Below, one piece after another: positions 2,128-27,867 of a stretch of DNA of 40,158 nucleotides; within the stretch, counting starts at the first letter, position 1, and every line of letters begins with the position of its first letter. Made by a program: the position numbers and the translations under genes. Below the pieces are notes generated by a model. The model saw only the letters and a program-made list of their open reading frames with translations. It was not told the DNA's origin and ran no database searches. Source of the stretch: Planctomycetota bacterium (lineage in GTDB: Bacteria > Planctomycetota > Planctomycetia > Pirellulales > Thermoguttaceae); assembly GCA_029550925.1 (NCBI GenBank), contig JAKPGL010000117.1, positions 1 to 40,158 on the forward strand, written 5' to 3'.

Positions 2128-5073
2128 CTAAGGGGCCTCCGGCGGCATCGGTTCCGAGGTCATCTCTTCTGGCGGCACCAGGGTCTGCCACTGTTTCGGA
2201 TCGGGCGGAATCCATTCCTCCCGGCCTCTTACCCGACTGAGCATCCACCGCCAAAAATGGGCGTTTTCAATCATTCCGGCAGTGGGCGACCCAGCGGTTT
2301 CGTCGAAGTTCTTATTGGTTGCAAAATAGGTATCGCCGATCACGACTACACCGCCGCCGCCAATATGCCGATGGATCACGATCGGCGTATCCTCGTAGCC
2401 CCGGACCAGCACATCGGCGTCTTCGGTCTCGGCCTCGACCGGCCAAGGGGCGTACAGGGTAACCGCCAGCATGTAATCGCCCCGGCCATAGTGTTTGGCG
2501 TTGAGATAATAGGTGCGAAGCCGACCGTAGTTGTCGGGGGATTCTCCTGGGCCGGGCGATAGACCGATCGGCTCGGCTTCCGGCTCGGTTTCTCCCGGAC
2601 CGACCGGAGAACGTGGTATCCGAACTCTCCAGGCGTCCAACAAGGGCCGCAGGGCCTCGGCATCCTCGGCCCCGGCCATCGCAATGAAATTGCCGCCATT
2701 TTGGACATGTTCCTGAATAGCGGACTGCTCCGAACCGGAAAAGCGCCGAGCCGGCCCGATCGACAGCCACACGGCCGCCGTCTGGAGCCGATCCGGCTTT
2801 GCGTCCGGCGCCAAAAGCGGCAAATACCCCGCCTGCATCAGGCTGATAAACAATCGGCCAAGGCCGTCCGGGTGCCAGGGCCGAAGGCTATAGGCTTCCA
2901 TGTGGGAGGCGTCGATGTAGGCCAGCGGCAACCCCTTGGGCGCAAGCAGCGCTACCCCTTCCCTTTCCGGAGAAGAAGCGGCCCCATTGGGAGCGGCGTC
3001 AGAAATGTTCCCGACACCGGAAGCCGTCGGAGCTGTTCGGCCGCCGCCCGGGGGTTGCAGTAACACCCGGCCCGCTCGGCTTGTTTGCTGCCAACCGACC
3101 AAGATCATCCCCCCTAAAACGGCGGCGGTAACGGCCAGGACGGTGTAACGCGGCCGACAGGCCAACAGCACCAGCATCAAGCCCCCGCAGAACAAACCAA
3201 CGATCTGCCGCCACCAATCGGCCGAGCTGGCGCCCCGATGGGCCAAATAGCCTAACAATCGGCCTACAAAAAGATAGGAAATCGGAAGATTTTCCGTCTG
3301 GAGACACTCGGGGCTTGCCAGCACGACCACCCGACCCAATCCCAGCCGGGTTTCGGCGGCCAAGACTACATCCCCAAGCCGTTCTCCGGGATCATACCGG
3401 GGGAGGAAATCGGACTGGGCAGCTTCTCGGCCTGGATCGCCATAACCCCAAAGACCCACCAGCAGCGGACTGGCGGGCCAATGAAGTTCCAAGCTGCCCG
3501 GACGGTCCCAACCTACCAGAGACTTTTGTAGAGGGTGGCGGGCCTGGGCCAGGGGAAAGACGGCCGGATGACTTACCAGCAGCAGCCCCTCCGCCCAATC
3601 CCCCCAAACCGGCACCCCCGTCTCATACCGAAACTTTATCCCCCATTCTGCCAGCAATTCGGGCAAGGATATTTGCTCCGATCCGGATAAAATAGCACTA
3701 GTTCCGCCCGAACAGGCCACGAACAAACTGCCGCCTCCTTCTACATATTGCTGAAGGGAATTGGCAACTTCCCGGGGGAAAGGCCCTATGTTCCCCAGCA
3801 AAAGAACTACATCGGTTTGTTGGAGGTCTTTTTCGGCTAGTCGGGTGGTATAGCTCCATTGGCCGCCCAAACTGGCGACCAATTCCGGCAACATCCCGAA
3901 TCGGCCCATCTCGGAACGGGCGTATCGGTCGGGCAGGGGCCGGGTCCAGTCCTGAGGATTCGGCGTATAGGCCAGCAGTTTTTTCCCGGCCAGATTGCCC
4001 GGGGTGCCCCAGAAGAACATTAGCCCTCCCCACAGGAGGACTAAAACAACCGGTCCCGCTTCGAGGGCGATTTCTTTCCAGACGGTACCAGGGGAGGGCG
4101 TCTTCCTTGCAACAGGAGCAGAAGAGGACAAAGAGTATTCCGCAGATGTTTCATCTTCCCCTAATGGCAGGGACTTGGGCCAACCTATCCATCGGGCGGC
4201 CAGACCAAGAACGGTCAGGTAAATGGCCAGCCCTACCCAAGGGAAATTCCAGGGCAAAAGACTTTTCAGGGCCTCCGACCAACTCCAGGGCGGCGGAAGA
4301 TAAACATGATATTCTGGCCGGGGCGGCGGCGGAGGGAGGTTATCTCTTAAAATAGGCGTCCAACTTAATCCAGCCAAGTAGAGCAGGTGTCCCAGGAAGA
4401 GGGCGATGGCCAATCCCAAGGTCCCTTTCCAACCAAATGGGCCGGTTCGCCTCCTCCAGATAAGGAGCCAAGCGAAGCTCAACACCAAAAAATCCACCCC
4501 GCCAAAAATTGCCCCCACTTCCAAGGGTTGCCCCCCAAAACGGCCGCCTAACCATCCCAGCAACCGGCCGATCCAGTCGGCCAGACGCCAATACAGGGGG
4601 ATAGTGAACACAGCCAAGCGATGGACGGCGAACACCAAGGCGGCCAAGGCCAAACAGGTCAGGAGGTTTCGGAGTCGGTCTTGTTGGAGGCTGGCCAACC
4701 CGGCCAGGGCCAGCACCACCGCCAAAAGATTCAATACTGGAAGAGAATCTGCCGCAAACAGAATGACCAGCACCAGAATGCCGGCTGCTTGAGCGAGTTT
4801 TTCCCCGGGAATAGGCCACCCAGAAGGGTTAGGAGAAGACGCCGCCTTGCTGGGAACGATCCGCCCCGGCCACGCCAAAATCCCCATCGCCACAAGCACC
4901 AGAGCAATCAGCACATGCCGAAACGCCCCGGCAAGCAAACCCACCGAACCGGCGCCGATCCAGCAGGCCGACAACCCCAAAAGAAACACACCCATCTCCC
5001 GGGCTGAGAGGGGAGCGAGGCTAGGCAAAGAGAATCCCTGGTTGGGAGGGCTTTGCCCTTTTAGCTCGTCCAT
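2128..5073 (-). CDS. Membrane protein with two GATase-like domains, function unknown
   Basis: This 981-residue protein starts at an ATG preceded by AGGAGG about 10 bases upstream. The first 320 residues hold about eight to ten hydrophobic helices. Two soluble regions follow, each with the alternating strand/helix pattern of glutamine-amidotransferase-like folds: one around residues 390-560 (DVVLLLGNIGPFPREVANSL, then YVEGGGSLFVACSGG) and one in the C-terminal third (GPARRFSGSEQSAIQEHVQN, then GGNFIAMAGAEDAE). They are separated by two helices near residues 640-680. The tail is rich in Pro and Glu. No catalytic Cys-His-Glu triad is seen, so enzymatic activity is unlikely. In planctomycetes such proteins often neighbour MoxR/DUF58/VWA operons; here only the two membrane genes are in view. 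Role unknown. Confidence 0.85.
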   Translation of the reverse strand: MDELKGQSPPNQGFSLPSLAPLSAREMGVFLLGLSACWIGAGSVGLLAGAFRHVLIALVLVAMGILAWPGRIVPSKAASSPNPSGWPIPGEKLAQAAGILVLVILFAADSLPVLNLLAVVLALAGLASLQQDRLRNLLTCLALAALVFAVHRLAVFTIPLYWRLADWIGRLLGWLGGRFGGQPLEVGAIFGGVDFLVLSFAWLLIWRRRTGPFGWKGTLGLAIALFLGHLLYLAGLSWTPILRDNLPPPPPRPEYHVYLPPPWSWSEALKSLLPWNFPWVGLAIYLTVLGLAARWIGWPKSLPLGEDETSAEYSLSSSAPVARKTPSPGTVWKEIALEAGPVVLVLLWGGLMFFWGTPGNLAGKKLLAYTPNPQDWTRPLPDRYARSEMGRFGMLPELVASLGGQWSYTTRLAEKDLQQTDVVLLLGNIGPFPREVANSLQQYVEGGGSLFVACSGGTSAILSGSEQISLPELLAEWGIKFRYETGVPVWGDWAEGLLLVSHPAVFPLAQARHPLQKSLVGWDRPGSLELHWPASPLLVGLWGYGDPGREAAQSDFLPRYDPGERLGDVVLAAETRLGLGRVVVLASPECLQTENLPISYLFVGRLLGYLAHRGASSADWWRQIVGLFCGGLMLVLLACRPRYTVLAVTAAVLGGMILVGWQQTSRAGRVLLQPPGGGRTAPTASGVGNISDAAPNGAASSPEREGVALLAPKGLPLAYIDASHMEAYSLRPWHPDGLGRLFISLMQAGYLPLLAPDAKPDRLQTAAVWLSIGPARRFSGSEQSAIQEHVQNGGNFIAMAGAEDAEALRPLLDAWRVRIPRSPVGPGETEPEAEPIGLSPGPGESPDNYGRLRTYYLNAKHYGRGDYMLAVTLYAPWPVEAETEDADVLVRGYEDTPIVIHRHIGGGGVVVIGDTYFATNKNFDETAGSPTAGMIENAHFWRWMLSRVRGREEWIPPDPKQWQTLVPPEEMTSEPMPPEAP

Positions 5074-18458: not shown

Positions 18459-19997
<1,539 letters not shown>

Positions 19998-20289: not shown

Positions 20290-22920
20290 ATGCGAACACA
20301 ATCTCAACCATCTTTCTGGCAGAAAGTCGCTCCGAAAATTCGGCAAACCTTGGGCTTAGGCGTCCTTTGGGTTGTGGGAAGTTGGTGTTTTGGCGAAGAG
20401 GGAGTCAGTGTGCCAGAAAACGCCCCTGGTCCCAGCCCGGCAACGGGGTCCCAATGGATCGCTGCGGCCTCCCAACCTACCACAGAAAAGACTCTACCCA
20501 CCCAGACTCCCCTCTCCGAGGCCAAAAATCTTTTCGACGGACGCACGCTGACCGGTTGGAAGGTGCTGGATGAGTTGGCATTTAAGACGCACGGCAAAGT
20601 AGAAGTTCGGGACGGCCAGATTCTTTTGTACCGAGGCGAACCATTTACCGGCGTCCAGTGGACCGGCCAGTTTCCCCGCTCCGATTATGAAGTCCTGATC
20701 GAAGCCCGCCGCGTCGATGGCGACGACTTTTTCTGCGGCCTGGTCTTTCCGGTAGGTCAGGCTGATTGTTCGCTCATCGTAGGCGGCTGGGGCGGCAGCA
20801 CCGTCGGCCTTTCCAATATCGACGGCGAACCCGCCGCCGAAAACGAAACCGCCAAAGTCTATGATTTTGAAAAAGGCCGATGGTACTCCATCCGCCTTCG
20901 CGTAACCGATCAGAAAATCCTGGTCTGGATCGACCAGGAAAAACTGGTCGATTTCAAGTATCCGGATCGGAAGCTGTCCATCCGCTGGGACCAGGAACCG
21001 ATGCGCCCCTTTGGCATCTGCACCTGGCAAACGACCGGCGCAGTACGAAACGTGCAACTTCGTCGGCTTGGCAAAGACGAACCGCCGGCAGAGCGGGCGA
21101 CGGCCAAACCGGAACCTGCCAAACAGAAATCATCTCAAACCGAGCACCTCCAGCCGAACTTGTCCCTGTCGTCTGCCGAACAGCCCTCTGGTTTACAACC
21201 TCCTGCCTCCACTGGTCGATTGCCTACCGCACAGGGGACCCGCAGCGAGTTTGCCGCGCCGAAGACCTTCGACGGAAAACTTGTCCACTGCCGGGTTGAA
21301 CTTCAAGAAATTGGCCAAGGCTTTCGCATCTATCGGTTCTGGTATCCGTCGCCGATTCAGACGCCGGTAGAGCAAAACAATACGATCCCGGCGGAGTATT
21401 ACCTGCCTGATGGAGCAGAGACTGGGCCGGCCCGGCCAGCGGTCATTGTGCTGCACATTCTGAACGGCAATTACGAGTTGGAGCGGTTGTTGTGTCGGAC
21501 GTTGGCCCTGCGGGGCGTGCCGGCGCTGATGTTCAAGCTGCCCTATTACGACGAGCGGGCGCCGGCGGGCGGTCGGAAACGGCTCCTCCAGGAACCAGAG
21601 CTTTTTGTGCAGGCGTTGCCCCAGACCATTGCCGACTGCCGACGCACGATCGACGTATTGGCCGCCCGGCCGGAAGTCGATTCGGCCAAAATCAGCCTGG
21701 CCGGCATTAGTCTGGGCGGCATTGTCGGCGCTACGGCGGCGGCTGCCGACGGCCGGATCCACCGGGCCGCCTTGCTCCTGGCCGGCGGCGATCTACTGGC
21801 GATTATCCACCATTGCCGGGAAGCCCGACCGTTGCACCAGTTTTTGGAGTCCTTGCCCGCCCAGCGCCGCCAACAGATGGAAAAGGCCCTAGAGGAAATC
21901 GATCCACTCCATCATGCGTCGGCTTTGCGCGAGCGGGCGCAGGCCGGCCGAGTCCTGATGGTCAACGCCGCCCAGGATGAGGTGATCCCCCGGGCCTGCA
22001 CTGAAAAACTGGCCCAGGCCCTCGGCATGGCCGATCGGGTCGTCTGGCTAGACGGTTTGGGCCACTACACGGCCATCGCGGCTTTGCCGCAAACCCTTGC
22101 CCAGACCACGGCCTTTTTTGCCGAGGATTTGCCAGCCGAAGCCAAACCGCCTGTTGTGTCGCCGCCGAAACCGGACACCCCCTTGGAAGTTGCGGGCGGT
22201 TTGGTGCGTGAGCTTTTGACCATTCTGCTTCAAGAGCCGAACGAAGGCCGATGCCGTCTGCTGGATATTTCCGCCGAGGTCTCTGATCCGGAGGGCAAAA
22301 AACACGAGGGCCGACTCCGCTGGATCTGCGGCGACAAGTACCGATTCCGTCTGGAGGTAAAAGTTACCGGCTTCCCGGAACTGCAGACCGGCCAAGGAGA
22401 TCGACCCTGGTTGGTCTCAACGAAGCGGGTCTTTGTGGGACGGATCAACCAGGGCCAGGAGGCCCCAACCAGCCCGCAGCGGCCGGATCCGTTGAAGTTT
22501 GTTCCGGATCGGCATCTGGGGCGTATCAAGGTATGGACCGCTGCCCTGCGAGGCGCGGTCCAAATGCCTAGTTTGCTCCAGTCGCTCCTGGAAGCGGAAG
22601 AAATCCAACCGGCCAGTGGTCCAAAAGTCGCCGATTCGCCGACGGCAGCCCAGACCGGTCGAGTCCTTCAGCTCCGCCAGAAGGAGAAAAAGCAAAACAC
22701 CCTCCAAATGGTTTTGACCCCGGAGGGCCGCCCAAGCCAGATAGAGCTTTCCATAGATAAAGTCCGGGCGAAGATCACGGTGCACGGCTGGCAGGTGGAC
22801 GCCCCAGCCCCTGCGCCGCTCTTCGATCCGCCCGATCTACCCATCCAACAGGTCGATCCGGAAGACCTCGTGCGTATTTGGTCCGCCCTGGTGGAATTTA
22901 TGATGGAAAAGATGGAATGA
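20290..22920 (+). CDS. Secreted DUF1080 - alpha/beta hydrolase - C-terminal domain protein
   Basis: An 876-residue protein with an N-terminal signal (GLGVLWVVGSWCF). Residues about 80-260 form a DUF1080/3-keto-disaccharide hydrolase domain of jelly-roll fold (NLFDGRTLTGWKV, then GRWYSIRLRV and DQEPMRPFGICTW). Residues about 330-625 are an alpha/beta hydrolase resembling acyl/acetyl esterases, with Ser474 in GISLGG, Asp563 in AAQDEV and His592 in GLGHYT as a plausible triad. The last 230 residues are a beta-rich domain that looks LolA/lipoprotein-carrier-like (KYRFRLEVKV, then MVLTPEGRPSQIELSIDKV); this last call is inference. The ATG at 20290 follows GGGAGG; an in-frame GTG 15 bases upstream is less likely. 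It is 47 bp upstream of the GH62-containing gene and probably co-transcribed. The domain combination is unusual. Confidence 0.88.
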   Translation: MRTQSQPSFWQKVAPKIRQTLGLGVLWVVGSWCFGEEGVSVPENAPGPSPATGSQWIAAASQPTTEKTLPTQTPLSEAKNLFDGRTLTGWKVLDELAFKTHGKVEVRDGQILLYRGEPFTGVQWTGQFPRSDYEVLIEARRVDGDDFFCGLVFPVGQADCSLIVGGWGGSTVGLSNIDGEPAAENETAKVYDFEKGRWYSIRLRVTDQKILVWIDQEKLVDFKYPDRKLSIRWDQEPMRPFGICTWQTTGAVRNVQLRRLGKDEPPAERATAKPEPAKQKSSQTEHLQPNLSLSSAEQPSGLQPPASTGRLPTAQGTRSEFAAPKTFDGKLVHCRVELQEIGQGFRIYRFWYPSPIQTPVEQNNTIPAEYYLPDGAETGPARPAVIVLHILNGNYELERLLCRTLALRGVPALMFKLPYYDERAPAGGRKRLLQEPELFVQALPQTIADCRRTIDVLAARPEVDSAKISLAGISLGGIVGATAAAADGRIHRAALLLAGGDLLAIIHHCREARPLHQFLESLPAQRRQQMEKALEEIDPLHHASALRERAQAGRVLMVNAAQDEVIPRACTEKLAQALGMADRVVWLDGLGHYTAIAALPQTLAQTTAFFAEDLPAEAKPPVVSPPKPDTPLEVAGGLVRELLTILLQEPNEGRCRLLDISAEVSDPEGKKHEGRLRWICGDKYRFRLEVKVTGFPELQTGQGDRPWLVSTKRVFVGRINQGQEAPTSPQRPDPLKFVPDRHLGRIKVWTAALRGAVQMPSLLQSLLEAEEIQPASGPKVADSPTAAQTGRVLQLRQKEKKQNTLQMVLTPEGRPSQIELSIDKVRAKITVHGWQVDAPAPAPLFDPPDLPIQQVDPEDLVRIWSALVEFMMEKME

Positions 22921-22967: not shown

Positions 22968-25298
22968 ATGTATAGAAGATTAGTTTTCGGGGTTTGTTGC
23001 ATTGGGCTTGTGGTCTATTGTTGGACGCCCTTGGCGGCCGCTGAGGTGGGCGGCCCCGGTTCGGATCGCCAAACGGTCGAACACCAACCACCAGCCTCCG
23101 CCAACCGATCCTTTCCCGAGCCGGAACTGGTGGCTAAGGACCCGGCGGGCCACGGCGTGCTGGGCCGATTGGAAGGCAAAACCATCCTCATCGTCCACGG
23201 TACGCCAGCCCAAATGGGCCGGGCGCACGGCACGTTGCTGGCCGAAAAGGCCCGCATCTTAACTACCCGCGTGCTTTACAGCGTCGGCGGTCTGGATACG
23301 ATCCAAAGCGGCCGATGGTTCCTGGACCTGATGGAAGAAATCCATCGGCGAACCGGACCGTTTGTCCCGAAGCGATTTTTTGAGGAGATCGATGCGGCTA
23401 GCCAGGCTGCCGGCATTTCTGTACGGGACGGCCGACTGGCCAATCTTTTCCCCGAACGGTTCCATTGCAGCGGGGTGGCGGTCCGCGGAAAGGCAAGCCG
23501 GGACGGCCGGGTCTATCATGGCCGGGTGCTCGATTACATGCGGGATATTCACCTCCAACGGGCCGCCGTGGTGCAGGTGTTTATCCCGGACGGGTACAAC
23601 ACCTGGATGAGCCTGGGCTATGCCGGGTTTCTCGGTACGGTAACCTGCATGAATGAGCGAGGCTTGGCCATCGGCGAAATGGGCGGTCGCGGCGAAGGCG
23701 ATTGGGATGGAATGCCGATGACCTTCCTGATGCGGGACATCATGGAGCGGGCCAGCACGGTGGAAGAAGCCCTGGAAATCTTCCGGAAAACGCCCCGCAC
23801 GTGTGAATATTACTATGTGCTGAGCGACAAACATCGGGACATGGCCGCCGTGCGGGCCACGCCTAAAGAACTGCTGGTGCTTCGCCCCGGCCAACAGCAT
23901 CCTTTGTTGCCGCATGTGCCGGAGGATACGGTCTTCATTTCCGGCGACACCCGCGCCCAGGTCCTCAGCCAGCGATTGCAGGAGCATTACGGCAAAATCG
24001 ACGTGGAACGGATGATCCAGATCATCAAACGCCCGGTGGCAATGGCCAGCAACCTGCACAACGCCATTTTTTCGCCGGAGACGCTGGAGATGTGGGTGGC
24101 CGACGCCGGTCGGGACACCCCAGCCTGCGACGAGCCGTATGTGCGGGTCTCGCTGCCGGAACTGGTGCAGTGGTATCGGAAAGTCAACAAATTATCCGAA
24201 GGGCAAAAGAATCCTATTTCGGGGAAGTTTCTCCGGGACATGCCCCAAAATCTATCGGAAGATTTTGCGTCCGGGAGAGACCCTGAAAGCCGCTGTCTGA
24301 TCAACATTCAGGCCGGGGAGCAATCTCTTCCATCACCCTCCCCCGGGCTAGAGGCCGTTTTGAAGGGGCGGTTTTCGTGGCAAATTGGGCCGCCGCTGGT
24401 AGAACCCGTGCAACCGGAAGGCGACGTCTGCTACAGCGTAAAAGACCCCAGCATTGTGTTCCACAATGGCCGATGGCATTTGTTCTGCACCGTTCGGGGC
24501 CAGAAACGCAGCCATCAGATTGAATACCTTAGCTTTGCGGATTGGAAGGAAGCCAACGGCGCCCGGCGGATTCGCCTCGAGAATCATGAGGGATTTTTCT
24601 GTGCCCCGCAGGTATTCTATTTTACGCCGCACAAGAAGTGGTATCTCATTTGTCAGGCCAGCGACCCGGCATGGAATCCGAAATACGGGGCGGCCTTTGC
24701 TACGACGGAAAACTTGGCCGATCCGGCCTCGTGGACGGGGCTTCGGCTGTTGGGCGCCAAACCGGCCGACGGCAAAGCCGGCCTGGACTTCTGGATCATC
24801 TGCGATGAAAAGTCCGCCCATCTCTTTTTCACCACCCTGGACGGCCGAATGTGGCGAGAGGAGACCCGGTTAGAGGATTTTCCCCACGGCTGGTCCGAGC
24901 CGGTGCTGGCCATTCAGGGCGATATTTTTGAAGCTGGCCATGTGTATAAACTTCGGGGAATGCAACAATATATCGCCCTGATCGAAGCCCAAGGTGGGCC
25001 CGGCTGGCGGTACTACAAAGCCTACTTGGCCGATCGACTGGAAGGCCCCTGGAAACCGGCGGCCGACAGCCAGGACCAGTCGTTTGCCAGCATGAAGAAC
25101 GTCCGACAGACCGGCGCCCAATGGACCGATTGCATCAGCCACGGCGAACTGCTCCGCTGCGGTGTGGACGAACACCTGGAGGTAGATCCGAACGACTTGA
25201 AGTTTCTCTTCCAGGGGGTCTTGGACCCAGACCGGGCCGGCAAACCCTACGGACAAATCCCCTGGCGATTGGGCCTGCTGGAACCGCCCAAGCCGTAA
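22968..25298 (+). CDS. Secreted fusion: C45-type acyltransferase/peptidase + GH62 alpha-L-arabinofuranosidase
   Basis: A 776-residue protein with an N-terminal signal (LVFGVCCIGLVVYCW). Residues about 70-400 form an Ntn-hydrolase-like C45 domain: GTPAQMGRAHGTLLAEK, the expected nucleophile Cys167 in RFHCSGVAV, GRVLDYM, and CMNERGLAIGEMGG. In this family, autoproteolysis frees the Cys as a new N-terminus, which here would split the chain. Residues about 470-776 match GH62: VKDPSIVFHNGRWHLFC (base Asp493), LDFWIICDE (Asp607), IFEAGHVYKL (acid Glu655), TDCISHGELLR and PWRLGLLEP. All three GH62 catalytic carboxylates are present, so cleavage of arabinofuranosyl side chains (arabinoxylan) is plausible. 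The ATG at 22968 follows AAGGAGA; an upstream in-frame TTG is rejected. Confidence 0.88.
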   Translation: MYRRLVFGVCCIGLVVYCWTPLAAAEVGGPGSDRQTVEHQPPASANRSFPEPELVAKDPAGHGVLGRLEGKTILIVHGTPAQMGRAHGTLLAEKARILTTRVLYSVGGLDTIQSGRWFLDLMEEIHRRTGPFVPKRFFEEIDAASQAAGISVRDGRLANLFPERFHCSGVAVRGKASRDGRVYHGRVLDYMRDIHLQRAAVVQVFIPDGYNTWMSLGYAGFLGTVTCMNERGLAIGEMGGRGEGDWDGMPMTFLMRDIMERASTVEEALEIFRKTPRTCEYYYVLSDKHRDMAAVRATPKELLVLRPGQQHPLLPHVPEDTVFISGDTRAQVLSQRLQEHYGKIDVERMIQIIKRPVAMASNLHNAIFSPETLEMWVADAGRDTPACDEPYVRVSLPELVQWYRKVNKLSEGQKNPISGKFLRDMPQNLSEDFASGRDPESRCLINIQAGEQSLPSPSPGLEAVLKGRFSWQIGPPLVEPVQPEGDVCYSVKDPSIVFHNGRWHLFCTVRGQKRSHQIEYLSFADWKEANGARRIRLENHEGFFCAPQVFYFTPHKKWYLICQASDPAWNPKYGAAFATTENLADPASWTGLRLLGAKPADGKAGLDFWIICDEKSAHLFFTTLDGRMWREETRLEDFPHGWSEPVLAIQGDIFEAGHVYKLRGMQQYIALIEAQGGPGWRYYKAYLADRLEGPWKPAADSQDQSFASMKNVRQTGAQWTDCISHGELLRCGVDEHLEVDPNDLKFLFQGVLDPDRAGKPYGQIPWRLGLLEPPKP

Positions 25299-25429: not shown

Positions 25430-26206
25430 ATGCAAAGGTCGATCGCTCGGGAAATGGCGGCGGAGTTTTTGGGGACTTTTGTATTGATCGTCTTCGGGTG
25501 CGGTTCGGTGGCCCAGGTGTTGCTGAGCGGCCGCACCAATGGCGAATACTTGTCGATCAATATCGGTTGGGCCTTGGGGGTGACGTTGGGCGTGTACGTG
25601 GCCGGCGGCGTATCGGGGGCGCATTTGAATCCGGCGGTAAGCGTGGCCTTGGCTACGTTGGGACGATTCCCCTGGCGGAAGGTATTGCCCTACAGTGCAG
25701 CCCAACTGGCCGGCGCCTTTGCGGCTTCCGCGGTGGTCTATATTACCTATCTGGACGCCTTGAACCACTTTGACGGAGGCGTTCGCCAGGTGCTCGGCGA
25801 GTACGGCACTGCCGGCATCTGGGCGACCTATCCCCAGCCGTTCCTTTCGCCCCTGCCGGGCGGCCTGATCGACCAGATTGTCGGCACGGCTCTGTTACTT
25901 TTGTGTATCATGGCGTTGATCGACCGGCGCAACTGCGCCCCACCGACCAATCTGAGTCCGCTGGTGATTGGCCTGGTGGTGTTAGTGATCGGAATCACTT
26001 TTGGGTACAACTCTGGATATGCGATCAATCCGGCCCGGGATTTGGGGCCGCGGCTGTTTACATTTCTGGCCGGTTGGGGCGTGGAGGTCTTTCGCGCCGG
26101 CGGTTATTGGTGGTGGATCCCGATCGTCGGGCCGTTGGTGGGCGGGGTGCTGGGCGCCTGGGTTTATGAGTTGCTCGTGGGACGGCGGCATCCTCCGGAA
26201 CAATAA
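25430..26206 (+). CDS. glpF: Glycerol facilitator / aquaglyceroporin (MIP family)
   Basis: A 258-residue inner-membrane channel with six helices and both hemichannel signatures: HLNPAVS (Asn67-Ala69) and INPARD (Asn200-Asp204). The Asp after the second NPAR is the residue that marks glycerol-conducting GlpF members rather than water-only AqpZ. The loops after helix 3 are long, as in GlpF. GAGGGA precedes the ATG. No glycerol kinase or glycerol-3-phosphate dehydrogenase lies next to it, so its physiological solute is not confirmed by context. Confidence 0.93.
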   Translation: MQRSIAREMAAEFLGTFVLIVFGCGSVAQVLLSGRTNGEYLSINIGWALGVTLGVYVAGGVSGAHLNPAVSVALATLGRFPWRKVLPYSAAQLAGAFAASAVVYITYLDALNHFDGGVRQVLGEYGTAGIWATYPQPFLSPLPGGLIDQIVGTALLLLCIMALIDRRNCAPPTNLSPLVIGLVVLVIGITFGYNSGYAINPARDLGPRLFTFLAGWGVEVFRAGGYWWWIPIVGPLVGGVLGAWVYELLVGRRHPPEQ

Positions 26207-26744: not shown

Positions 26745-27867
26745 ATGGAAAAAGAGTGGTTAGATCGGGCCGAGGCGATTCGAGAGCGGCTAAAACAATT
26801 GCAGGACTCTCTTTGACTATGCGGCCAGACAGGCACGAGCGGCGGATCTGGAAGAGCAGATGGCCCAGCCAGATTTCTGGAATCGGCCGGAACGCTCCCA
26901 GGCGGTCGTTGCGGAGTTAAAGGCCCTGAAAGCCATTCTGAAACCGATGGAGACTCTGGCCCGGCAGACCGATGACCTTCACGCCCTGCTGGAGATGGCC
27001 GAGGAAGACGCCGAACTGGCCGCCGAAGTCCCCCAGGCCTTGGAACAACTCGAAGCTCAACTGAAAGACCTGGAACTGAAGGCCCTGCTCAACGGGCCGT
27101 GGGACGGCCATTCGGCGATTGTCAGTATCCACGCCCGGGACGGCGGCGCCGATGCGGCCGATTGGGCCGAGATGCTCCTGCGCATGTATATCAACTGGGC
27201 AAAAAGCCGCGACTATGAAGTGGAACTCCTGGATCGGCAAGACAACGACCCGGCCGGCATTGCCAGTGCGGCGATTGCGGTGCGCGGGCCGATGGCCTAT
27301 GGGTATCTGAAAGGCGAGTCGGGCATCCATCGGCTGGTTCGGATCAGTCCGTTCAATGCGGAGGGCAAGCGGCAGACCAGTTTTGCCGCCGTCGATGTTA
27401 CGCCGGAAATTACCGACGAAAAAGAGGTCGAAATCCGGGAAGAAGACATTGAGGAGCAGGTGTTTCGATCCAGCGGGCCGGGCGGCCAGCATGTGAATAA
27501 AACTTCCAGCGCCGTCCGATTGACCCATATTCCGACCGGCATTGTCGTCGCCTGTCAGACCCAACGAAGCCAACATCAGAATCGGGCCGCCGCAATGCGG
27601 ATGCTGCGGGCGCGGCTTGCCCGGATCGAAGAAGAAAAACGAGAAGCCGAACAGGCCGCCAAATACAAACAAATGCCCAAAACCGGCTTCGGCTCCCAAA
27701 TTCGCAATTATTTCCTCCATCCGGAGCAGCGGGTTAAAGACGCCAGAACCGGCTATATGGTTACAGATTTCCACCGTGTCTTGGACGGCGACATCCAGCC
27801 GTTCCTGGACGCCTACCTGCGCTGGCGGGCTGCGCAGGAAGAACCTTCGACGAAAACGCACTCCTGA
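26745..27867 (+). CDS. prfB: Peptide chain release factor 2, programmed +1 frameshift
   Basis: Release factor 2 reads UGA and UAA and triggers peptide release. The gene needs a +1 shift: an ATG at 26745 (after GGGAGG) opens 23 codons ending CTT TGA C, with TGA at 26814-26816. Skipping the T at 26814 continues in frame from GAC at 26815 to the stop at 27867, giving 373 residues, the normal family length. Visible motifs are the tripeptide anticodon SPF (201-203) and the peptidyl-hydrolysis GGQ (246-248) in SSGPGGQHVNKTSSAVRLTH. An AGGA lies a few bases upstream of the CTT TGA C site as a weak stimulatory Shine-Dalgarno. RF2 therefore autoregulates its own synthesis. Starting at the internal ATG at 26860 would lose the N-terminal helix. 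Confidence 0.95.
26807..26817 (+). promoter_or_regulatory. RF2 recoding site (CTT TGA C)
   Basis: The slippery CTT codon (26811-26813), in-frame TGA (26814-26816) and following C match the conserved RF2 frameshift site. When RF2 is scarce, the ribosome pauses at UGA and shifts by +1, restoring RF2 production. Confidence 0.92.

What the first reader, a model, noticed from the sequence alone, without database searches (positions are those of the whole stretch)
22968..25298. C45 acyltransferase/peptidase fused to a GH62 arabinofuranosidase
One reading frame joins an Ntn-hydrolase-like C45 domain (Cys167 in RFHCSGVAV) to a complete GH62 domain with its three catalytic carboxylates (Asp493, Asp607, Glu655). 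C45 enzymes normally act on amide or acyl bonds and mature by self-cleavage, while GH62 removes arabinofuranosyl groups. A single secreted chain with both is not an arrangement I know. It might strip both the sugar and an amide- or acyl-linked group from one substrate, or use autoproteolysis to release the glycosidase.
Basis: partly seen in the sequence, partly recalled or inferred. Interest (0 to 1): 0.68.

Follow-up and report, generated by a model that had tools for sequence, protein, structure and literature searches.

The report
Acylase–arabinosidase fusion beside esterase gene
Three related uncultured planctomycetes carry one probably secreted protein that joins a self-cutting acyl-removing enzyme to an arabinose-removing enzyme; the join is real but was found only in this genus, and the acyl-removing part has an older, widely shared partner esterase encoded next to it.

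Summary
Window 22968-25298 encodes a 776-aa protein with a complete C45 Ntn-hydrolase domain (Cys167; NF040521 147 bits, cut-off 85) and a complete GH62 domain (PF03664 124 bits, cut-off 22.1; Asp493, Asp607, Glu655), joined by a variable linker of about 56 aa. It is not an assembly artefact: the domains are collinear in 3 of 3 genomes of the genus, open in two, with an in-frame TAG in the linker of the third. Both are under purifying selection (omega 0.04-0.05 and 0.07-0.09). No C45-GH62 fusion was seen outside the genus (62 GH62 matches in 396 genomes of the order, 22 in 392 of the phylum with one unexamined, 46 named loci). 'Autoproteolysis releases the glycosidase' fails on geometry: the cut before Cys167 leaves GH62 on the beta chain. 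Unforeseen: an alpha/beta-hydrolase with a C-terminal domain unknown to Pfam is encoded beside C45 in several phyla and often fused to it, in both orders. In this genus both neighbours gained a sugar-related domain. Best reading: a deacylating pair retargeted to an acylated, arabinose-bearing polymer, like the characterised GH62-CE6 enzymes. Substrate and joint action are inferred; a bystander fusion is the main rival.

The parts
22968..25298 (+). C45-GH62 fusion gene (776 aa plus stop)
22968..23042 (+). probable Sec signal peptide (about residues 1-25)
   Evidence: read by eye: basic start, hydrophobic run, AAA-E; predicted helix 4-18 at low pLDDT; no signal-peptide program run
23115..24182 (+). 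C45 autoproteolytic Ntn-hydrolase domain (about residues 50-405)
   Evidence: NF040521, PF03417, alignment A3, fold: IAT 2x1d Z 34.1, rmsd 2.7, 308 aligned; NAAA 6dxw Z 30.6, rmsd 2.9, 293 aligned
23466..23468 (+). Cys167 codon: predicted nucleophile; predicted self-cleavage just before it
   Evidence: invariant in 33 of 33; structural alignments to the NAAA and ceramidase beta chains begin at model residue 167
24195..24362 (+). inter-domain linker (about residues 410-465), variable in length, low confidence in the model
24363..25286 (+). GH62 alpha-L-arabinofuranosidase domain (about residues 466-773)
   Evidence: PF03664, PDB GH62 matches, tree
24444..24446 (+). GH62 Asp493 (presumed catalytic; role recalled)
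   Evidence: 50 of 51 rows
24786..24788 (+). GH62 Asp607 (presumed catalytic; role recalled)
   Evidence: 51 of 51 rows
24930..24932 (+). GH62 Glu655 (presumed catalytic; role recalled)
   Evidence: 50 of 51 rows
20290..22920 (+). upstream neighbour gene: 3-keto-disaccharide-hydrolase-like domain, alpha/beta-hydrolase, C-terminal domain unknown to Pfam; its stop ends 47 bases before the fusion's ATG (start codon unsure: GTG 20275 or ATG 20290)
20521..21063 (+). 3-keto-disaccharide-hydrolase-like domain on the neighbour protein
   Evidence: PF06439 E 2.9e-13; by BLAST found only in the three genus members among the loci searched; two relatives of the neighbour protein scanned with Pfam lack it (L120, L124)
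21262..22137 (+). alpha/beta-hydrolase domain with invariant Ser, Asp and His
   Evidence: alignment A2 invariants S150, D239, H268 in 30 rows; fold nearest CE7 acetyl xylan esterase 2xlc Z 26.3, rmsd 2.8, 265 aligned
22180..22914 (+). C-terminal domain of about 230-245 aa with no Pfam family
   Evidence: model mostly above pLDDT 80; no Pfam match for the window copy, two chance-level single-member matches among 19 copies

Best explanation
The protein is a secreted two-enzyme chain. The N-terminal half is a C45 proenzyme that cuts itself before Cys167 and then uses Cys167 to hydrolyse or transfer an acyl group held by an amide or ester bond. The C-terminal half is an ordinary GH62 exo-alpha-L-arabinofuranosidase that stays attached to the C45 beta chain by a flexible linker. 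The C45 enzyme works with the esterase (alpha/beta-hydrolase) encoded 47 bases upstream, an old pair found in several phyla. In the ancestor of this genus the pair was retargeted: the esterase gained a sugar-related domain at its N-terminus and the C45 enzyme gained GH62 at its C-terminus, so that acyl groups and arabinose are removed from the same arabinose-bearing polymer. Shown here by sequence: both domains, their catalytic residues, the reading frame, purifying selection, the gene pair and the additions seen only in this genus. Inferred: secretion, self-cleavage, both activities, the shared substrate, and that the pair acts together.
For: Domains above curated cut-offs and PDB relatives of both. 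C45 model (pLDDT mostly above 90) aligns with isopenicillin N acyltransferase, NAAA and acid ceramidase, Z 29-34. Cys167, Arg186, Asp189 and Asn229 invariant in 33 of 33, Asn362 nearly so. GH62 carboxylates kept in 50, 51 and 50 of 51. Pairwise dN/dS 0.04-0.05 for C45 and 0.07-0.09 for GH62 among the three genus members. Linker open in two of three genomes against chance. Gene pair: of 117 C45 matches in 396 genomes of the order, 36 have the alpha/beta-hydrolase upstream on the same strand (35 within 700 bases, one at 3042) and 29 have it downstream within 350; of the 39 best-scoring C45 matches 34 have it upstream. Equal open-frame lengths put both in one frame in 6 genomes with the hydrolase first and 24 with C45 first. 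Nearest fold of the esterase is CE7 acetyl xylan esterase. Precedent: GH62-CE6 of Ruminiclostridium releases arabinose and acetate (PMC6556953, passages). In family f7 GH62 is fused to a PF00756 esterase.
Against: One of three genomes has an in-frame TAG in the linker, so in that assembly GH62 would lack a signal peptide. GH62 is not a general partner of this C45 family: 24 of 396 genomes have both against 16.3 expected, p 0.012 without correction for kinship; of the 37 family genomes, 13 have GH62, 24 have C45 and 11 have both, p 0.065. The pair is not universal either: 52 of 117 C45 matches had no alpha/beta-hydrolase within 3.5 kb at the threshold used, and of 137 genomes with the hydrolase 51 lack a C45 match at 1e-60. 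No xylan-degrading gene is among the ten window ORFs scanned. C45-type enzymes are known mainly for amides, while acyl groups on arabinoxylan are esters (general knowledge). The upstream hydrolase scores below the Pfam AXE1 cut-off (10.8 against 21 bits), so it is CE7-like in fold only.
Confidence: 0.5

Rival explanations
1. Bystander fusion. A GH62 gene landed downstream of the C45 gene, the stop was lost, and GH62 uses the C45 signal peptide and expression. Both domains are active but act on unrelated substrates.
For: Fusion seen in one genus only; linker fast-evolving and variable in length; weak co-occurrence of GH62 and C45; one genome has a stop between the halves.
Against: Frame held in two of three lineages at dS 0.7-0.9; the neighbouring protein gained a sugar-related domain in the same lineage.
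Confidence: 0.33
2. GH62 acts as a binding or anchoring module that brings the C45 deacylase to arabinose-bearing polymers; its own hydrolysis is secondary.
For: The other added domain in the same operon, PF06439-like, may also serve binding (recalled; one search gives only the family). The linker is long and modelled with low confidence, as expected of a flexible one.
Against: All three carboxylates are kept in all three genus members, with dN/dS 0.07-0.09.
Confidence: 0.1
3. Self-cleavage releases the glycosidase.
For: Ntn-hydrolases are made as inactive precursors that process themselves (PMC9140057, start of abstract in a search listing; C45 enzymes in particular: recalled, and the NCBIfam name).
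Against: The predicted cut lies at 166/167, at the start of the C45 beta chain, so GH62 stays linked to it.
Confidence: 0.03
4. Assembly or sequencing artefact.
For: The window is a contig of a draft genome; one relative has a stop in the linker.
Against: The same join in three different genomes at 81-87% identity.
Confidence: 0.02

Closest known systems
GH62-CE6 bifunctional enzymes (RcAbf62B-Axe6 of Ruminiclostridium cellulolyticum; RjAbf62A-Axe6A of R. josui)
   Same: GH62 and a deacylase in one chain; arabinose and acetate release measured (PMC6556953, passages)
   Different: The deacylase is a CE6 esterase, not a C45 Ntn-hydrolase; module order there is GH62-CBM6-dockerin-CE6, here C45-GH62
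GH62-PF00756 esterase proteins of a sister family (L139-L142)
   Same: GH62 plus acyl hydrolase in one chain within the same order
   Different: Feruloyl-esterase-like alpha/beta-hydrolase; domain order reversed; separate GH62 branch in the tree
Isopenicillin N acyltransferase, NAAA and acid ceramidase (C45-type Ntn enzymes)
   Same: Fold, Cys at the start of the beta chain
   Different: 14-19% identity in the structural alignments; a GH62 partner or this esterase neighbour is not known for them (recalled); substrate here unknown
CE7 acetyl xylan esterase / cephalosporin C deacetylase (for the upstream gene)
   Same: Closest fold over the alpha/beta-hydrolase part, Z 26.3; Ser, Asp and His kept
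   Different: Below the Pfam AXE1 cut-off; extra C-terminal domain; encoded beside C45

Membership tests
C45 autoproteolytic acyltransferase/hydrolase | score above the curated NCBIfam and Pfam cut-offs | tested here: met
   NF040521 147.4 against 85; PF03417 52 against 23.2
C45 autoproteolytic acyltransferase/hydrolase | nucleophile Cys and surrounding catalytic residues | tested here: met
   C167, R186, D189, N229 invariant in 33 of 33, N362 nearly invariant; roles recalled from NAAA
C45 autoproteolytic acyltransferase/hydrolase | Ntn (alpha-beta-beta-alpha) fold | tested here: met
   model against 2x1d Z 34.1, rmsd 2.7, 308 aligned
C45 autoproteolytic acyltransferase/hydrolase | self-cleavage before the Cys | not testable with these tools
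   needs purified protein
GH62 | score above the Pfam cut-off over the whole profile | tested here: met
   124 against 22.1 bits, profile 23-270 of 272
GH62 | three catalytic carboxylates | tested here: met
   D493, D607, E655 in the protein, kept in 50, 51 and 50 of 51; that these three are the catalytic ones is recalled, not read in a paper
GH62 | arabinofuranosidase activity | not testable with these tools
   needs assay; dbCAN not available
CE7 (upstream alpha/beta-hydrolase) | score above the Pfam AXE1 (PF05448) cut-off | tested here: not met
   10.8 against 21 bits
CE7 (upstream alpha/beta-hydrolase) | CE7-like fold with Ser-Asp-His | tested here: met
   Z 26.3 to 2xlc, rmsd 2.8, 265 aligned; S150, D239, H268 invariant in A2, 30 rows
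GH62-CE6 bifunctional enzyme | CE6 module on the same chain | tested here: not met
   Pfam reported only GH62, AAT and a weak GH43 match on this protein; the second module is C45

The most novel reading that the evidence does not exclude
The C45 domain belongs to a secreted enzyme system of three modules for which I found no description: C45 Ntn-hydrolase, CE7-like esterase, and a beta-rich domain of about 230 aa without a Pfam family. By record titles it occurs in Planctomycetota, Verrucomicrobiota, Lentisphaerota, Kiritimatiellota and, in a rearranged form, Bacteroidota, Calditrichota and KSB1. It breaks an amide and an ester bond in one acylated compound, and in this genus it was rebuilt into an arabinose-polymer deacylase by adding GH62 and a 3-keto-disaccharide-hydrolase-like domain.
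Probability: 0.25. Interest if true: 0.72.

Novelty: new variant of a known kind. Interest (0 to 1): 0.45.

Why it matters
GH62 joined to a deacylase is known, but I found no report of a self-activating Ntn-hydrolase in that role (searches; open-access library). It gives a concrete test of what environmental C45 enzymes do: GH62 points to a sugar-bearing substrate, and the common esterase neighbour points to a molecule with more than one acyl bond. The repeatedly fused C45-esterase pair is a strong lead to a shared pathway step in several phyla.

Tried and rejected
Rejected: assembly artefact (same join in three genomes); release of GH62 by self-cleavage (position of the cut); a general C45-GH62 partnership (weak co-occurrence); a xylan-utilisation locus around the gene (ten window ORFs scanned, none a polysaccharide-degrading enzyme; the remaining ORFs were not scanned).

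Long GH62 frames checked for C45: five in family f7, four of them scanned and carrying a PF00756 esterase, the second G081 copy not scanned; G537 is GH62-GH10, G506 and G287 show only GH62; G397 and G210 read as GH62 alone once a start codon is required. G413 (1547-aa frame, match below the cut-off) was not examined. Of the 62 matches, those without a fetched locus were judged by frame length only, and a few (G353, G009) are truncated or split. 54 GH62 loci held no C45 match at E 1e-3 within the DNA held, often only 1.5 kb on each side, and some of these loci overlap. The named-genome scan works from six peptide patterns of this protein and reaches close relatives only.

Led nowhere: alignment A1 put GH62-only rows onto C45 columns and was dropped. 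The fusion model left GH62 badly modelled (pLDDT under 70 in nearly all blocks, pTM 0.56), as only two rows covered it, so it says nothing on domain packing. The first GH62 alignment and tree cut the wrong part of the G002 row; both were redone. hhalign between the esterase's C-terminal domain and the N-terminal domain of C45 in other phyla gave probability 0.3% with fewer rows, then 63% global and 39% local with more: suggestive, not shown. PDB sequence searches with these two domains gave nothing and short matches to two Ig-design-like chains, best E 5.8e-4, judged spurious. In the structural lists only C45 and the alpha/beta-hydrolase were covered, so the C-terminal domain's fold stays open. 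I considered an amide-and-ester lipid such as ornithine lipid as the substrate; nothing here tests it. Two fragment rows (one each of G020 and G004) were dropped before the count of 117; Table rows were retyped by hand into. In the neighbourhood check, eight duplicate loci were left out, L119 has no hydrolase beside C45, and L101 and L126 end too close to tell.

Papers: searches listed no paper that by title or abstract treats a C45-GH62 protein or the C45-esterase pair; only passages of PMC6556953, PMC11131199 and PMC5863359 were opened. In one search none of the ten listed of 5,178 papers holds the enzyme's name. The library is open-access only.

Full report
WHAT IS THERE. The frame 22968-25298 (+) encodes 776 aa. 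Residues 78-372 match the C45 proenzyme family NF040521 (6e-43, 147 bits against a cut-off of 85) and 182-301 match PF03417. Residues 489-741 match GH62 PF03664 (9.6e-36, 124 bits against 22.1), and 467-772 align with solved GH62 structures such as 5b6s (2.4e-67). Cys167, Arg186, Asp189 and Asn229 are invariant in 33 of 33 aligned C45 rows, Asn362 nearly so. Asp493, Asp607 and Glu655 are kept in 50, 51 and 50 of 51 GH62 rows. A model of the C45 part (pLDDT mostly above 90) aligns with isopenicillin N acyltransferase (Z 34.1, rmsd 2.7, 308 aligned), NAAA (Z 30.6, rmsd 2.9, 293) and acid ceramidase (Z 29.1, rmsd 3.5, 304); the alignments to the mature NAAA and ceramidase beta chains begin at model residue 167. 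The GH62 part of that model is poor and is not used.

IS THE JOIN REAL. Two other genomes of the genus hold the same join: G002, whose contig has the same length as JANXAQ010000088.1 (Thermoguttaceae SKYB124), and G001, matching CALIRO010000047.1 in the same way. G002 is open. G001 reads GTT TAG CTT CAG in the linker. The linkers of G000, G001 and G002 hold 0, 1 and 0 in-frame stops where 2.2, 2.6 and 3.0 are expected from base composition. Pairwise dN/dS is 0.04-0.05 for C45, 0.07-0.09 for GH62 and 0.26 and 0.43 for the two linker pairs where it could be computed, at dS 0.70-0.92 in the two domains. G001's GH62 shows no excess of amino-acid changes (codons unique to it: 8 changed, 38 silent; G000 9 and 31; G002 10 and 45). 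So its stop is recent, an error, or tolerated by a means not seen here.

HOW WIDE IS IT. Of 60 genomes searched with the whole protein 39 have a match; outside the genus no listed match spans both halves. GH62 is found in 56 of 396 genomes of the order (62 matches), and only G000 and G002 have an open frame that holds both halves (with for the other long frames). Of 392 genomes across the phylum 22 have a GH62 match (21 over the cut-off); none but G000 was found to be a C45 fusion, with G413 (below the cut-off, long frame) not examined. A pattern scan of one genome for each of 84,980 species gave 46 loci, two of them this fusion (one with the TAG); the window's own genome may be left out there. 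Quick trees (SH-aLRT support only) put the three fused GH62 domains together (99), next to the family member G003 (90) and near G020, and the three fused C45 domains together (100) among planctomycete C45 proteins, mostly of the family. So the genus joined two genes of kinds that its family already had.

THE OLDER NEIGHBOUR. Directly upstream (47 bases) lies a gene for a 3-keto-disaccharide-hydrolase-like domain, an alpha/beta-hydrolase and a C-terminal domain without Pfam family. In relatives titled Planctomycetota, Verrucomicrobiota, Kiritimatiellota and Lentisphaerota the C45 gene usually sits just downstream of the same hydrolase, in most with the C-terminal domain and with no BLAST match to the sugar-related part (phylum names are record titles of MAGs and some may be wrong). 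Of 117 C45 matches in 396 genomes of the order, 36 have the hydrolase upstream and 29 downstream on the same strand; 52 have none by the criteria used. Of the 39 best-scoring C45 matches 34 have it upstream. The hydrolase profile matches 137 genomes and C45 115; 86 have both, 51 only the hydrolase and 29 only C45. Equal open-frame lengths show one joint reading frame in 6 genomes with the hydrolase first (G006, G016, G127, G223, G234, G247) and in 24 with C45 first. Of the 6, four were inspected (L120, L123; L156, L166); of the 24, six (L148, L150, L151, L152, L154, L155), plus G214 (L160) whose hydrolase fell below the threshold. In loci titled KSB1, Calditrichota, Bacteroidota and others, and in some Planctomycetota, C45 carries an N-terminal domain of about 260 aa that may be kin to the hydrolase's C-terminal domain (hhalign probability 0.3% to 63% by input and mode): unproven. 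The hydrolase model (mean pLDDT 89.6) is closest to CE7 acetyl xylan esterases (2xlc, Z 26.3, rmsd 2.8, 265 aligned), with Ser, Asp and His invariant in the 30-row alignment, but it fails the Pfam CE7 (AXE1) cut-off.

MECHANISM. Shown: the two catalytic domains, their residues, the frame, selection, and the additions seen on both neighbouring proteins in this genus. Inferred: export, self-cleavage before Cys167, acyl transfer or hydrolysis by Cys167, arabinose removal by GH62, and joint action with the esterase on one polymer. The cut at 166/167 leaves GH62 on the beta chain, so release of the glycosidase is not expected. The closest working model is the GH62-CE6 enzyme of Ruminiclostridium, which removes arabinose and acetate (PMC6556953, passages read). 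Sister family f7 carries GH62-esterase fusions and G537 a GH62-GH10 fusion.

WEAK POINTS. GH62 and C45 co-occur only slightly more than expected (24 genomes against 16.3 of 396, p 0.012 uncorrected for kinship; in 37 family genomes 11 with both, p 0.065). One genome has a stop between the halves. None of the ten window ORFs scanned degrades a polysaccharide. Secretion was not tested by a program. A bystander fusion stays a serious rival (0.33).

VERDICT. Real, rare, new variant of a known kind (GH62 plus deacylase). The wider interest lies in the C45-esterase pair and its unclassified domain.

Noticed in passing
window 20290-22920 and loci L062, L063: The upstream esterase protein carries an N-terminal PF06439-like domain, by BLAST only in this genus, parallel to the GH62 gain by its neighbour.
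   Followed up: partly
L120 2324-5254, L123 1984-4875, L156, L166; L148, L150-L152, L154, L155, L160: C45 and alpha/beta-hydrolase fused in one reading frame, in both orders, in different planctomycete families.
   Followed up: partly
L083-L097, first about 260 aa of the C45 proteins: N-terminal domain starting with a hydrophobic stretch and with only chance-level Pfam matches, on C45 proteins titled KSB1, Calditrichota, Bacteroidota, Lentisphaerae and others.
   Followed up: partly
L063 9974-12385 (CALIRO010000047.1): In-frame TAG in the linker of the fusion while GH62 downstream shows no relaxed selection.
   Followed up: partly
window 19580-19882: 101-aa reading frame 97% identical in both other genus members, with no Pfam match at 1e-5.
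   Followed up: no
window 25430-26206: Aquaporin-like gene (by eye) between the fusion and the release-factor-like gene (by eye) at 26860; no BLAST match in the stretches held of the two relatives.
   Followed up: no
L139-L142; L167: GH62 fused to a PF00756 esterase, and GH62 fused to GH10, in other Planctomycetota.
   Followed up: partly
L112 3249-5129: A C45 protein with about 200 extra C-terminal residues that match no Pfam family.
   Followed up: no
L104 7733-10573: GH95 followed by a GH62 domain cut by the contig end in a MAG titled Bryobacterales.
   Followed up: no
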